In this document: positions 1,959 through 64,000 of the stretch, piece by piece | Numbering within the stretch: position 1 is the stretch's first letter | Layout of the letters: the number at the start of each line of letters is the position of its first letter | Origin: Brachyhypopomus gauderio | Taxonomy: Eukaryota > Chordata > Actinopteri > Gymnotiformes > Hypopomidae | NCBI RefSeq assembly: GCF_052324685.1 | Contig: NC_135218.1 | Location: 24,666,601-24,730,600 of the forward strand | DNA: 64,000 bases | Direction: 5' to 3' | The notes under the pieces: model-generated | What the model was told of the DNA's origin: nothing | What the model saw: the letters and a program-made list of their open reading frames with translations, nothing else | Databases searched by the model: none | Program-made: the position numbers and the translations under genes

Positions 1959-4312
1959 CTATAGATGTTTCCCTCGCCCCTCGGAGAGCACCAGTTCGGG
2001 CACCGCACGCGTGTACCACTCCGACCAGCCCCCGTCATACACGGACACGTCCGGCTGGCCGCACTCGCAGGCCGCCAGGGCAACGCTGCAGGCCGTCACG
2101 GCCGAACCGCACGTGGCGCACAGCGGCTGCCGCAGGTCCACCCCGGCCTGCTGAAACAGCGCCCTCAGCTGGTCTGGAGGAAGCATCAGCCCGGACGGAG
2201 CCAGGAAAGACGTGAAGGGCATGTTGATGGATCCAGGAATGTGGCCGGGTTCAGTGTCTGGCACGGACATGCACAAAAAGGAAGAAACACAATAGCTAGT
2301 TATGATGCAACCACTAAGTATTTGACATTTAGTACAACACATCTGATATAATATATAGCACTTTTGTAAGTCGCTCTGGATAAGAGCACTGGCGTAGGGG
2401 AGGGGCACGCAAGGCACGCACTGCGGGGGGACCCCGAACACAGGTGGGCCCCGCCTTAGGACGAGTTTGTTGTTTAGTCATCCTCCTGGGTGATGTTAAG
2501 CCTGGTCTGCGCGGCGAAAATGACGTAATCGCTGTGGCTCCGCCCGTGCGCGAGGGCCTCGCGCGCTGTCGATTCGCGAGGTCGTGCACCTCTCGAATTT
2601 TGTAATTTCGCGCGCGCGCCGCGCTTCAGCGCGATGAACAAAGTCATGTTTGCAGGCAGGGGCGAGGCTAGGGTATTTTTAGTGGTGCTAGAGCACCACC
2701 GTGAAGTTGCTCAGCACCCCCTGGCTCTACACATTTTTTAAATATTATATTATGCAAAAACCTTGCTCTGCACCTGCGCAATACTTTGGTATTGTGCCTC
2801 TGTGAGCACTGGGGGCTGGGCACCCCTAAAGACCAGATCCTAAAATCGCCCCTGTTTGCAGGGTTCATACACCTTAACAAGGTGGAATTAAAGCATTTGT
2901 ACATCACTTTCAAGGTCCATTTCAATATTTGCCAGCACGTTAAACTTAGTTAAATATTTATACATATACTCGAAATTATTCGCTTTTTATCACATTATTT
3001 AATGGTTGTTTATTTTCAAAACGCCCAATCTTAACGTCTTCACGTTCTCTCATGTTTCGTCCTGGAATTACAAGAGGCTCGTATTTGTTAACGTATCGTT
3101 TCGGACAACACTGCAAAGCCATATTTACACTGCAGCGACGCTCGCGAAAGTATAAACGCCTACACCGCTCGCGCAGGGTCGCGCGCTACGGTCGCTCGTG
3201 AGATTTTAGCTCACGCACGGGCCTCCTCATTGCCTCCTTGCGGTGGGGCCCCAGAATTATGCGCTACGCCTCAGGATAAGAGCGTCTGCTAAATGCCATA
3301 AATGTAAATGTAAATATAAATATATATAACCATTCACTTTACTCAGCAGCGAGTATGGAGTATTAAGACACTGCTCATTAAACCATAAAAGGCTGTTACA
3401 CGGACGTAGTTTTGGGGGGGGACATGTCCCCCCCACTTTTTCAAAAGCCGGTTTTGGTCCCCCCCAGTTTTTACAGTTAAACCCAAATATTTAAGTAGTG
3501 ACAAAGTCATGTCCCCCCCACTTTTTAACGGTAAAAAAACCAATATCCAAATAGCGACAAATCTAGCACTAGGATCATGCAGCACCCCCCCCCCCCCCCG
3601 CTTAACAGTTCGCCACCCCAGGTTGTGTCCCCCCCACTTGTGAAATCAAAACTACGTCCATGGGCTGTTAAACCTCATTCACAGTGACAACAACGTACAA
3701 AAAATAATACATCACACGTAAACACTGCGTGTCTGCTTATACAAACATATTGGACCCACCACAGCAAACTACCAGCGTCAGCACAGAATGAACTAGTCAG
3801 AGCCTGTGGGCCACGGGGGCTTCGAGGTCCAGTGGCTCCATAAACTTGGAGAAAGTGCGTTGAGAAATCGTCCAACTTGAACCCTGTCCTCTCCGTGTTA
3901 GTGTCGTACTGCACGTAAGCAGCACGCTGCCCTTGAAGGAGGACCCGACAGACCCGCACAAACATTAACTCACTTATTTATTGGGCTAATCTTGCCCGGG
4001 TCAGAGGGCTGCTCTCTTCACTACTCAGGCACAGTTCTCTTATACCTGCTTGTTTATTTTCGTCGGTGTCGACATGAAGAAGACGTGGCGTTTTTCTTTA
4101 GGTCAAGAGCAGTGGTAGACACTTGAAGATTTTTAAGTTCAGTTAGTAGCCTACATCAATTAGTAATTAGTACGCACTAGCTACCTAATTAAGAGAATCC
4201 AATCTGTTTTACACCGAGAAATGAATTTAAGATAGGGTTTATCTGTTAGCATAACAATAATAATAACAATAAGTATATTATATAATTAATAATATCAAAA
4301 ATAGTATTATAT

Positions 4313-10260: not shown

Positions 10261-12345
10261 GGTGCGAGTGCTAAACCTAGTCGTCCAGCACGCCCACCTC
10301 CCCGCGACCCAGCAGTGGTCCAACAGACGTCTCTAAACCCAGCCGAGGTCCAGCAGACGTCTCTAAACCCAGCTGAGGTCCAGCAGACGTCTCTATACCC
10401 AGCCGTGGTCCAGCAGACGTCTCTAAACCCAGCCGTGGTCCAGCAGACGTCTCTAAACCCAGCCGTGGTCCAGCAGACATCTCTAAACCCAGCCGTGGTC
10501 CAGCAGACATCTCTAAACCCAGCCGTGGTCCAGCAGACATCTCTAAACCCAGCCGTGGTCCAGCAGACATCTCTAAACCCAGCCGTGGTCCAGCAGACGT
10601 CTCTAAACCTAGCTGGGGTCCAGCAGACGTCTCTCCACCCAGCCGTGGCTCCATGCGTGCCCTCTGATCCATCAACAGACTCCCCAATTTATTTGTCCGT
10701 CCTGTCGGACGAGCTCACTGATAAGGTACAGGCATTCTGACAGTAGTGCTGTAACTGCCATGAATTTTGACATTAACAATTTGCTTCAGTCAAGATTTCT
10801 ATAACTATTCTATAGTTGTACTATACTATTTCAATAACTATTCTATATCTATATCTAAATGGGTTTTGTCAGTAGCTTGCGACACCTGCCAGACCTCCGC
10901 GTCCTGCCCCAAGGAGGTCTGTTCCCTCCAGGGAAGACCAGGTCTCTCTTGCCCAGCCAGAGGTGAAGCATTTTTAGCAAATTCACATCTCTTCCTCCAT
11001 AGTGTTTGCTTGTTCATTTTCATTTTCTCCTCTACAGAATTTATATGGGCACGCAGAGTCAACAGACGTTAGAACTGCAGGAGACCCTGTGTACGGTATG
11101 AACTCCGATCCAACGTCGGTTCTGTACCAAGACGTTCTTCCTGATGAGACCGATCTTACAGTAAGCCAGTGACATCGCTTCAGATGCGTTGCTTTACCAT
11201 ACATATGTATTTACTGTAAAGACCCTGGTGATAAAATAAACTTCTCAACATTTATGCACAAGATGTGCACATTTCATCACTAAATACTGATCCCAGTATG
11301 TATTTATATTTTCAGTACATTTCAGTACTTTTCAAGTATCAGTACATTTAAATTGGGGCTTTGTGAATGTACCATGTACAATATATAAGCTATGGCAGGG
11401 CATAATACATGATAATACCTACTGTCTTACTCTGGTTCCCTCACACCCAGCCCCAGGATTGTACCACACCACAAAGCCCCCCACCTCCTCGTCCTCTTGC
11501 TCCACCTCGTCCTGCTGCCCCCCCTCGCCCTGCAGTGGTACGACCCCCAAGACCCTCCCTACCCACATGGACCTCAGAAGATCCCACTGAGCACCTGTAT
11601 GAGTATATACCGGATCTACTGTCAAACACCCAGGTACGGGTACCGGGGACCCATCACAGATCATATCCACAGCCTCAGTGAGAGAATAAAGCCCAGAAAG
11701 GTCTGTGTGTTGAATGCGATTTCCGTTCGAACAGACGCAGGATGGAGGAGGTACGTTTTTGAGCCCAGTGCCTCCTGCAGTCCCAGCTGAGAGGAGGCCG
11801 CACAATGTTCGCTCCTGGAGTGAGCAGTCTAGCATGGAAGGAGATAACAGCTCCAAGGTGACGCACGCTGGTATCTCTCGCCAGCATCGTGCTCTGCAGA
11901 AATATGTGCGCTTTGACAGCGTCATGTTGCGCTGCAGTGACATAGAGAGTCTTAACTGGAGGGGTTGGGTTTTGTAAACACTATGACAATGTACAGAAGG
12001 TACAAAATAGGCTTTTTGCTTGTTGTTAATCAATTATATAAACAAGAAGGCAGCTCTCAATTACCAAGCAGCTTCTGGTTACGTTGCCTCCAGAATTGAC
12101 CTCAGGTTGGAATTGATTGAGATTTGGTATTCCACTTTAGTTAATAAAACGCACTGTGGTTAGTCAGAACACATGTTACAGTCAGGCCTGTTTGCATACA
12201 AACTCCACTCATTTAGGAATCCAGAATGATCACATGGAATGATATTTCTGGATCTGTTTTGATCAGATTGGAGTGTTATTTTTGTCAAAAGGACAAAAGT
12301 CTGTATATAAATCCAAGCATGTATCCTCCACATGTAATTTAAATT

Positions 12346-15959: not shown

Positions 15960-16375
15960 GACAGCTGACTGGTGGAGGGGCGCGAGGGTCCGCACGGCGA
16001 AAATGACGTAATGGCAGTGGCACCGCCCGTGCGCGAGGGCCTCACACGCTGTCTCGCGAGGTCGTGCACCTCTTGAATTTTGTAACTTCGCGCGCGCCGA
16101 AAGTTATAAAATAAAGTCAAGTTCATACACCTTTACAAGGTGGAATTAAAGCACTTGTACGTCACTTTCAAGGTCCATTTCAATATTTCCTAGCATGTTA
16201 AACTTAATTAAGTTAAATATTTATACGTATACTCGAAATCATTCGAAATAATTCGCTTTTTATCACATTATTTAATGGTGGTTTATTTTCAACGTTCACG
16301 TTCTCTCATGTTTCGTCCTGGAATTACAAGAGGCTCGTATTTGTTAACGTAATACAAGAGAACTGTTCAGTCAGA
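15960..16375. mobile_element. Second copy of the 886-bp nested element family
   Basis: This matches the interior of 2388-3273: both have GGCGAAAATGACGTAAT, CCGCCCGTGCGCGAGGGCCT, CGCGAGGTCGTGCACCTC, GGTGGAATTAAAGCA and TTACAAGAGGCTCGTATTTG in the same order. It is shorter because of internal deletions. It has AAAGTCAAGTTCATACACC where the first copy carries the 198-bp MITE, so it represents the state before that insertion. Confidence 0.75.
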
Positions 16376-30426: not shown

Positions 30427-62066
<31,640 letters not shown>

Positions 62067-64000
62067 GTTAGTGAATTAGCATCAGAGCTAACCAGTCCTC
62101 ACTCACAGGTTAGTGAATTAGCATCAGAGCTGACCAGTCCTCACTCACAGGTTAGTGAATTAGCATCAGAGCTAACCAGTCCTGACTCACAGGTTAGTGA
62201 ATTAGCATCAGAGCTAACCAGTCCTCACTCACAGGTTAGTGAATTAGCATCAGAGCTAACCAGTCCTGACTCACAGGTTAGTGAATTAGCATCAGAGCTA
62301 ACCAGTATCCTCACTCACAGGTTAGTGAATTAGCATCAGAGCTAACCAGTCCTCACTCACAGGTTAGTGAATTAGCATCAGAGCTAACCAGTCCTGACTC
62401 ACAGGTTAGTGAATTAGCATCAGAGCTAACCAGTCCTCACTCACAGGTTAGTGAATTAGCATCAGAGCTAACCTGCGTCCTCACTCACAGGTTAGTGAAT
62501 TAGCATCAGAGCTAACCAGTCCTCACTCACAGGTTAGTGAATTAGCATCAGAGCTAACCAGTCCTCACTCACAGGTTAGTGAATTAGCATCAGAGCTAAC
62601 CAGTCCTGACTCACAGGTTAGTGAATTAGCATCAGAGCTAACCAGTATCCTCACTCACAGGTTAGTGAATTAGCATCAGAGCTAACCAGTCCTCACTCAC
62701 AGGTTAGTGAATTAGCATCAGAGCTAACCAGTCCTGACTCACAGGTTAGTGAATTAGCATCAGAGCTAACCAGTCCTCACTCACAGGTTAGTGAATTAGC
62801 ATCAGAGCTAACCAGTCCTGACTCACAGGTTAGTGAATTAGCATCAGAGCTAACCAGTCCTCACTCACAGGTTAGTGAATTAGCATCAGAGCTAACCAGT
62901 CCTGACTCACAGGTTAGTGAATTAGCATCAGAGCTAACCAGTATCCTCACTCACAGGTTAGTGAATTAGCATCAGAGCTAACCAGTCCTCACTCACAGGT
63001 TAGTGAATTAGCATCAGAGCTAACCAGTCCTGACTCACAGGTTAGTGAATTAGCATCAGAGCTAACCAGTCCTCACTCACAGGTTAGTGAATTAGCATCA
63101 GAGCTAACCTGCGTCCTCACTCACAGATTAGTGAATTAGCATCAGAGCTAACCAGTCCTCACTCACAGGTTAGTGAATTAGCATCAGAGCTAACCAGTCC
63201 TCACTCACAGGTTAGTGAATTAGCATCAGAGCTAACCAGTCCTGACTCACAGGTTAGTGAATTAGCATCAGAGCTAACCAGTATCCTCACTCACAGGTTA
63301 GTGAATTAGCATCAGAGCTAACCAGTCCTCACTCACAGGTTAGTGAATTAGCATCAGAGCTAACCAGTATCCTCACTCACAGGTTAGTGAATTAGCATCA
63401 GAGCTAACCAGTCCTCACTCACAGGTTAGTGAATTAGCATCAGAGCTAACCAGTCCTGACTCACAGGTTAGTGAATTAGCATCAGAGCTAACCAGTCCTC
63501 ACTCACAGGTTAGTGAATTAGCATCAGAGCTAACCTGCGTCCTCACTCACAGGTTAGTGAATTAGCATCAGAGCTAACCAGTCCTCACTCACAGGTTAGT
63601 GAATTAGCATCAGAGCTAACCAGTCCTCACTCACAGGTTAGTGAATTAGCATCAGAGCTAACCAGCATCCTCACTCACAGGTTCGTGAATTAGCATCAGA
63701 GCTAACCAGTCCTCACTCACAGGTTAGTGAATTAGCATCAGAGCTAACCAGTCCTCACTCACAGGTTAGTGAATTAGCATCAGAGCTAACCTGCGTCCTC
63801 ACTCACAGGTTAGTGAATTAGCATCAGAGCTAACCTGCGTCCTCACTCACAGGTTAGTGAATTAGCATCAGAGCTAACCAGTCCTCACTCACAGGTTAGT
63901 GAATTAGCATCAGAGCTAACCAGTCCTGACTCACAGGTTAGTGAATTAGCATCAGAGCTAACCAGTCCTCACTCACAAGTTAGTGAATTAGCATCAGAGC
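62067..64000 (+). repeat. 42-44 bp minisatellite, 45+ units, splice-site-bearing
   Basis: The array starts exactly at the GT of the exon 11 donor and runs to the window edge: 45 complete units plus 22 nt. The unit begins GTTAGTGAATTAGC, contains CTAAC, and ends CCTCACTCACAG. Variants are CCTGAC, and 44-bp forms with TATCC, TGCGT or GCATCC insertions. Variants recur in a fixed order (a 44-bp TATCC unit, then CCTCAC, CCTGAC, CCTCAC, TGCGT, CCTCAC, CCTCAC) three times, showing block duplication. Each unit junction reads CACAG|GTTAGT. Confidence 0.97.

What the first reader, a model, noticed from the sequence alone, without database searches (positions are those of the whole stretch)
62067..64000. 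Tandem array of about 45 recursive-splice-like (AG|GT) sites at the start of an rbfox2 intron
Seen directly: each 42-44 bp unit carries a 5' splice-site copy (GTTAGT, identical to the exon 11 donor), a CTAAC branch-point-like motif, a pyrimidine-leaning stretch and CACAG; units abut, so each junction is CACAG|GTTAGT. Known: recursive splicing uses juxtaposed 3' and 5' splice sites with no exon between. Inference: the array amplified the donor itself and made dozens of zero-length-exon sites, decoy donors or a U1/U2 sponge in the transcript of a splicing regulator. About 42 nt between sites is very short for lariat formation, so decoy competition may be likelier than true ratcheting.
Basis: partly seen in the sequence, partly recalled or inferred. 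Interest (0 to 1): 0.85.

Follow-up and report, generated by a model that had tools for sequence, protein, structure and literature searches.

The report
Splice-donor minisatellite filling an rbfox2-like intron
In an unnamed, probably fish, genome an intron of an RBFOX splicing-factor gene consists almost entirely of about 92 tandem copies of a 42-44 bp unit that begins with a copy of the intron's own splice donor; it is most likely a passive minisatellite, but a striking natural test of how cells pick the right splice site among many identical ones.

Summary
From the exon end at 62066 the array runs past the window edge: 92 unit starts over 3,924 bp, 97% of a 4,036-nt intron, then a 112-nt tail with its own acceptor and the next in-frame RBFOX exon. 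AG|GT is intact at 79 of 92 junctions, CAG|GTTAGT at 72 of 92. The host is an RBFOX gene. Recursive splicing is not supported: unit acceptors are pyrimidine-poor beside five real acceptors of the gene, junctions show no constraint, and no RNA was available. Splicing from donors 2-6 adds RLVN and a stop. The donor is complementary to the unit's CTAACC "branch point"; real and decoy donors are predicted mostly paired. A second donor-anchored, intron-filling array lies in a KASH-domain gene, but 0 of 18 other donor-motif arrays whose edge I read are exon-anchored. Best reading: a minisatellite born at the exon-intron junction, tolerated because decoys stay mostly silent, perhaps leaking into stop-containing RNA. 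New variant of a known kind.

The parts
61972..62066 (+). Upstream coding exon of the RBFOX gene ([31 protein letters not shown] + AG), 95 nt, strong acceptor (94% pyrimidine)
62067..62072 (+). Authentic splice donor CAG|GTTAGT, also the start of unit 1
   Evidence: frame continues YSD-AG|C-TAC GGC into the next exon; use as donor is inferred from the frame, not from RNA
62067..64000 (+). Window part of the donor-anchored array: 46 unit starts, 42/44-bp units; it continues to genome C8:24732590 (L009:1990), 92 unit starts in all
62088..62093 (+). CTAACC of unit 1: branch-point-like, and reverse complement of GGTTAG of the donor
50918..53249 (+). RRM-coding exons of the same gene (match 50918-51091, exon 51452-51505, 93-nt exon 53157-53249), with introns between

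Best explanation
A donor-anchored minisatellite. Step 1 (inferred): a tandem duplication between the exon end (..ACAG|GTTAGT) and an ACAG 42 nt into a short ancestral intron copied the donor. Step 2 (supported by repeated runs of unit types): multi-unit exchange or slippage enlarged it to 92 units, so the intron is now the array plus a 112-nt tail carrying the real acceptor. Step 3 (inferred): splicing normally joins the first donor to the tail's acceptor. Decoys are mostly ignored because only the first donor borders an exon with a strong upstream acceptor, because unit acceptors are poor, and because GGUUAGU/GCUAACC pairing buries most donors and branch-like motifs. Step 4 (inferred): some decoy use leaks and yields RLVN-stop RNA, probably degraded.
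For: Array starts exactly at a coding exon end and runs to 112 nt before the next in-frame exon. Repeated runs of unit types: 8 identical successive units at units 3 and 18, 7 at units 6 and 31. No constraint on junctions: changed cells 24 of 819 at -3..+6 against 22 of 2,275 at the other scored positions (cells are not independent, the variable middle of the unit was not scored, and one unit with a 4-bp deletion adds several junction changes). Unit acceptor 65% pyrimidine against 82-94% in five real ones. Splicing from donors 2-6 gives RLVN-stop. Predicted pairing: 62060-62320 MFE -71.6, z -2.48, 2 of 200 shuffles as good; mean unpaired probability at +1..+6 of donors 1-8 was 0.08-0.29, and 0.22-0.43 when CTAACC was scrambled in silico. 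A second intron-filling array of this kind in a KASH gene shows that the process recurs.
Against: Burial does not separate the true donor from the decoys: the true donor is itself predicted buried (unpaired 0.006 and 0.082 in the windowed run, against 0.597, 0.634 and 0.413 for three other donors of the gene), so what selects the first donor is inferred, not shown. Over the whole 9-mer -3..+6 the effect of scrambling CTAACC is small (0.18-0.36 against 0.34-0.41). Low accessibility of the C8 unit is not exceptional against units with shuffled bases and the donor kept (42 of 300 as low). Another minisatellite of the window folds better against shuffles (z -5.09), and the real C9 array start gave only z -0.43. 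No RNA data, no orthologous intron, no population data.
Confidence: 0.62

Rival explanations
1. Poison-donor dial: decoy donors are used at a regulated or length-dependent rate; each use adds RLVN and a stop, so the array lowers rbfox dose through decay of the RNA.
For: Splicing from donors 2-6 to the next exon gives the same early stop. The 9-mer of the real donor recurs at 71 of the 91 later junctions. SRSF1 and hnRNP A1 are reported to favour intron-proximal and intron-distal donors respectively (PMC5585400, passages), so such a choice can be regulated. Rbfox3 is reported to promote stop-introducing cryptic exons in Rbfox2 RNA (PMC3126832, passages).
Against: No RNA data; no sign of constraint on the decoys; a structure that buries them is predicted.
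Confidence: 0.2
2. Recursive splicing: the intron is removed in steps, each regenerating a donor at the next CACAG|GTTAGT, by hops of two or more units.
For: AG|GT intact at 79 of 92 junctions; branch-like CTAAC in 88 of 92 units; a two-unit hop gives 84 nt with 66 nt donor-to-branch. Recursive sites are reported in smaller introns too (PMC10156609, passages).
Against: Weak acceptors; AG|GT not intact at 13 of 92 junctions; a 4-kb intron has no need of it (inference); branch motif predicted mostly paired.
Confidence: 0.06
3. RNA-structure gate: the self-complementary array slows or modulates removal of this intron as a whole (retention), with array length as the setting.
For: True donor predicted almost fully paired (0.006; 0.082); three consensus units fold with z -2.70.
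Against: In-silico folding of naked RNA only; z-scores moderate (-2.48); unit not exceptional against shuffled units (42 of 300).
Confidence: 0.09
4. Assembly artefact or collapsed/inflated repeat.
For: Long tandem arrays are often mis-sized (general knowledge); only one assembly was seen.
Against: 28 unit types among 91 complete units, with a proximal-distal difference and repeated runs; clean joins to the exon and the tail. An error in copy number remains possible.
Confidence: 0.03

Closest known systems
Introns embedded in tandem repeats and arrays of dual-specific AGGT splice sites (human UBC; PMC10809524, abstract and Results read)
   Same: Tandem units whose boundaries are AGGT sites that could act as donor or acceptor; the paper reports 792 human introns in 262 tandem repeats.
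   Different: In UBC the units are coding and are spliced in or out in frame; here units are 42-44 nt, carry stops, lie wholly inside the intron, and the intron is not a whole number of units.
Recursive splice sites / ratchet points of flies and vertebrates (PMC8605326 and PMC10156609, passages read)
   Same: Juxtaposed acceptor-like and donor motifs with no exon between.
   Different: Those sites are documented by splicing intermediates or lariats; here about 92 tandem copies with weak acceptors and no RNA evidence.
Intronic repeats of fish, e.g. the ~150-bp block at the 5' end of Sparus aurata MSTN-2 intron 1, present in one or two copies (PMC3045353, passages read)
   Same: Copy-number variation at the 5' end of a fish intron; the paper reports an extra predicted acceptor in the longer allele.
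   Different: There 1-2 copies; here 92, starting exactly at the donor and filling 97% of the intron.
Internally symmetrical stwintrons of Hypoxylaceae (PMC8469720, abstract and section list read)
   Same: Complex introns with a second donor and self-complementary sequence that may form double-stranded RNA.
   Different: Fungal, dispersed in many genes; here one tandem array per gene and no dispersed copies of the unit found.

Membership tests
Minisatellite (VNTR) | Head-to-tail array of about 10-100 bp units with sequence variants | tested here: met
   42/44-bp units (one of 38 bp), 92 starts, 28 unit types among 91 complete units
Minisatellite (VNTR) | Copy number varies between individuals | not testable with these tools
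   one assembly only
Recursive splice site | Juxtaposed AG|GT | tested here: met
   79 of 92 junctions
Recursive splice site | Good pyrimidine tract upstream | tested here: inconclusive
   65% pyrimidine at -20..-4 against 82-94% in five real acceptors; no trained splice-site score was available
Recursive splice site | Splicing intermediates or lariats | not testable with these tools
   no RNA data held
Dual-specific splice-site array (UBC type) | Intron length is a whole multiple of the repeat unit | tested here: not met
   4,036 nt = 3,924-bp array of mixed 42/44-bp units plus a 112-nt tail
Dual-specific splice-site array (UBC type) | The same AGGT is used as donor and as acceptor | not testable with these tools
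   no RNA data held
Introner-like / proliferating intron | Near-identical copies as introns in many genes | tested here: not met
   pattern CACAGGTTAGTN{5,20}CTAAC (94 matches, all listed) finds this unit only on C8; the C9 array has a different unit. Exact-pattern search: diverged copies could be missed
RBFOX gene | RRM and Fox-1 C-terminal domain | tested here: met
   RRM_1 E 8.2e-19 and Fox-1_C E 5.9e-38; best solved-structure match RBFOX1 E 3.5e-55, 'RNA-binding protein 9' E 1.2e-50 with a shorter aligned stretch, so these do not decide between rbfox1 and rbfox2

The most novel reading that the evidence does not exclude
The array is a working copy-number dial made of splice donors: its length sets how often a decoy donor is caught, and so how much rbfox RNA ends in the RLVN stop, giving a fast-evolving, individually variable control of a splicing regulator; the nesprin-like array would be a second instance of the same device.
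Probability: 0.1. Interest if true: 0.85.

Novelty: new variant of a known kind. Interest (0 to 1): 0.5.

Why it matters
Seventy-one later junctions carry exactly the 9-mer of the real donor, within 4 kb. If the first is nevertheless used faithfully, this intron is a natural experiment on how the spliceosome commits to one of many identical donors (exon definition, order of transcription, RNA structure). If it is not, it is a possibly length-variable source of stop-containing RNA from a splicing regulator. The second array in a KASH gene makes the question testable at two independent loci.

Tried and rejected
Genome-wide excess of donor-motif arrays: not general. AGGTNAGT triples gave 2,295 matches against 5,884 for the pattern read backwards; CAGGTAAGT triples 112 against 56; AAGGTAAGT triples 25 against 45. 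Counts are of matches, not arrays, and long arrays give many matches each.

Exon-anchoring as a common property: of 21 other donor-motif arrays fetched, the 5' edge was in view in 18 (L018, L019, L048, L049, L053, L055, L071, L077, L078, L080, L081, L082, L085, L086, L087, L088, L089, L090); 0 of 18 start at a recognisable exon end. In 3 the edge was not reached (L079, L083, L084). At least 10 more arrays listed were not fetched, and others are unlisted (searches list only their first places). Judged by eye on open frames, without annotation. L048 may be a coding repeat; L087 starts some tens of bases after a possible exon end. The single or few-copy matches on C1, C3, C5, C10, C12 and C21 were fetched but their surroundings were not checked for exons.

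Donor plus complementary partner: AGGTTAGT..CTAAC..AGGTTAGT gave 116 matches against 5 for the control; the listed rows come from four arrays (C8, C9, C11, C19) and one single site, two of the four exon-anchored. AGGTAAGT..CTTAC gave 30 against 2, from two arrays, neither exon-anchored. The C9 array was found through a pattern that demands CTAAC, so its hairpin is partly selected by my query. The third pattern (AGGTGAGT..CTCAC) did not complete.

RBFOX self-binding of the array: no GCATG in 3,924 bp. UUAG (173 in the array) as hnRNP A1 sites: motif recalled, not tested.

Identity of the C9 gene from the two exons flanking its array: no Pfam or solved-structure hit; settled instead by a KASH domain further down the same strand.

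Literature: of ten paper searches, those on repeats, introns and splice sites listed no paper on a tandem array of an authentic donor filling an intron, as far as titles and abstract openings show. Most subscription papers are absent from that library, so this is weak evidence of absence.

Full report
What is there. The window lies at C8:24666601-24730600 of a 797-Mb genome in 840 contigs; that it is a fish is my inference, not a result. A coding exon (61972-62066) ends ..TACAGTGACAG, and from 62067 an array of 42/44-bp units begins with GTTAGT, the exon's donor. It does not stop at the window edge: fetched sequence shows it running to L009:1990 (C8:24732590), with 92 unit starts. It is followed by 112 nt of sequence outside the array, ending in CTTCCTCAG, and then the next exon, CTACGGCCGTGTGTACGCAGCGGACCC.., which continues the frame as YSD-S-YGRVYAADPY; the joined last exon ends ATLYRGGYSRFSPY-stop. 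So the intron is 4,036 nt and 3,924 of them (97%) are the array.

Host gene. Window and downstream exons read in order give RRM_1 and Fox-1_C domains; the best solved-structure match is RBFOX1, with 'RNA-binding protein 9' (recalled to be RBFOX2) a little lower over a shorter stretch. That the gene is rbfox2 rather than rbfox1 or rbfox3 rests on a sequence recalled from memory and compared. In mammals the exons after this position are tissue-specific and mutually exclusive; that is recalled, not tested.

Junctions. AG|GT is intact at 79 of 92, GT at 90, AG at 80, the full CAG|GTTAGT at 72; by halves 43 of the first 45 and 29 of the last 47. The proximal half is more uniform, so probably younger. 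Identical runs of 8 units (starting at units 3 and 18) and 7 units (6 and 31) point to multi-unit exchange. Junction positions are not protected: 24 of 819 cells changed, against 22 of 2,275 at other scored positions. Cells are not independent, the variable middle of the unit was not scored, and a unit with a 4-bp deletion adds some junction changes, so I claim only absence of constraint.

Splicing logic. Joining donors 2-6 to the next exon was translated and gave R-L-V-N-stop each time; the reading is set by the first unit, so I expect the same of any later donor. The acceptor-like end of a unit is 65% pyrimidine at -20..-4; five real acceptors of the gene are 82-94%. One unit is very short for a lariat (24 nt from donor to branch A), but two units give 84 nt with 66 nt from donor to branch A, and 17 nt from branch A to the end of the unit. 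I see no reason in the sequence why two-unit hops could not happen at a low rate.

Structure. GGUUAGU and GCUAACC of the same or neighbouring units are complementary. Window 62060-62320 folds to -71.6 kcal/mol, z -2.48; three consensus units z -2.70; three C9 units z -3.47; four other arrays folded for comparison gave -0.41, -0.68, -5.09 and +2.03. The actual start of the C9 array gave only z -0.43, which is against a strong structural claim there. Unpaired probability of the true donor at +1..+6 is 0.006 in a 200-nt context, against 0.413-0.634 at three other donors of the gene; a windowed run gave 0.082 for it and 0.08-0.29 for donors 2-8. Scrambling CTAACC raised these to 0.22-0.43, but over the whole 9-mer the change was small. 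Against arrays of units with shuffled bases but the same donor, C8 is not exceptional (42 of 300 as low) while C9 is (1 of 300). Structure may help to silence decoys but hits the true donor as well, so it cannot by itself explain the choice of the first donor.

A second case. On C9 (L011, minus strand) an exon ends AACACAGAGACGCAGAGCACAG|GTTAGAG and a 40-bp array begins, whose unit is the last ~22 nt of the exon plus the first ~18 nt of the intron; 35.5 copies by TRF take up 1,375 of 1,492 nt of the intron, and the next exon continues the frame as STG-VIERWELIQAQ. Its own donor is GTTAGA, while 25 of the 32 donors matched in the array are GTTAGTG. Reading on past the first donor gives G-stop. 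A KASH domain lies further down on the same strand, so the gene is probably a nesprin.

How special is it? Donor-motif arrays as such are not clearly in excess. I read the 5' edge of 18 others: none starts at a recognisable exon end. So two donor-anchored, intron-filling arrays are known here, both with GTTAGT and a complementary CTAAC; the second was found with a pattern that requires CTAAC, so that shared feature is partly selected.

Compared with the known. The nearest published setting is introns embedded in tandem repeats with dual-specific AGGT sites, UBC being the example (PMC10809524, abstract and Results read). Recursive sites (PMC10156609, PMC8605326, passages) share the motif but not the array. 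A fish precedent for repeats at the 5' end of an intron is S. aurata MSTN-2 (PMC3045353, passages). Self-complementary complex introns occur in fungi (PMC8469720, abstract).

Verdict. Real, larger and odder than reported, most likely a passive minisatellite seeded at the exon-intron junction; recursive splicing unlikely; leaky stop-producing decoys plausible and testable.

Noticed in passing
window 51837-52146: A 38-bp minisatellite of 8 copies, each carrying TGCATG (the RBFOX binding motif), lies in the intron just upstream (about 1 kb) of the 93-nt RRM exon 53157-53249. The RRM exon 6 of Rbfox2, recalled to be its equivalent, is reported to be skipped when RBFOX protein is raised (PMC3126832, passages), so this could be an amplified autoregulatory site. 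A chance motif in a 38-bp unit is not excluded (roughly 1% per unit by my estimate).
   Followed up: partly
L011 5693-7089 (genome C9:19322692-19324088, minus strand): Second donor-anchored, intron-filling array, in a KASH-domain gene; the unit includes the last ~22 nt of the exon, and most repeated donors (GTTAGT) differ from the exon's own (GTTAGA).
   Followed up: yes
window 10307-10653 and 38974-39498: Further minisatellites (30 bp x 11.5 and 23 bp x 22.8); four copies of the 30-bp unit fold much better than shuffles (z -5.09).
   Followed up: no
window 3060-3092 and 16316-16348, minus strand: The same short translated match (VNKYEPLVIPG) occurs twice on the minus strand, hinting at two copies of a repeated element.
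   Followed up: no
genome C1:2577460-2582344 (L019): A ~5-kb array of CAGGTTAGT-bearing 42-bp units abuts a sequence that looks like the 3' end of a retroelement (judged by eye), not an exon.
   Followed up: partly
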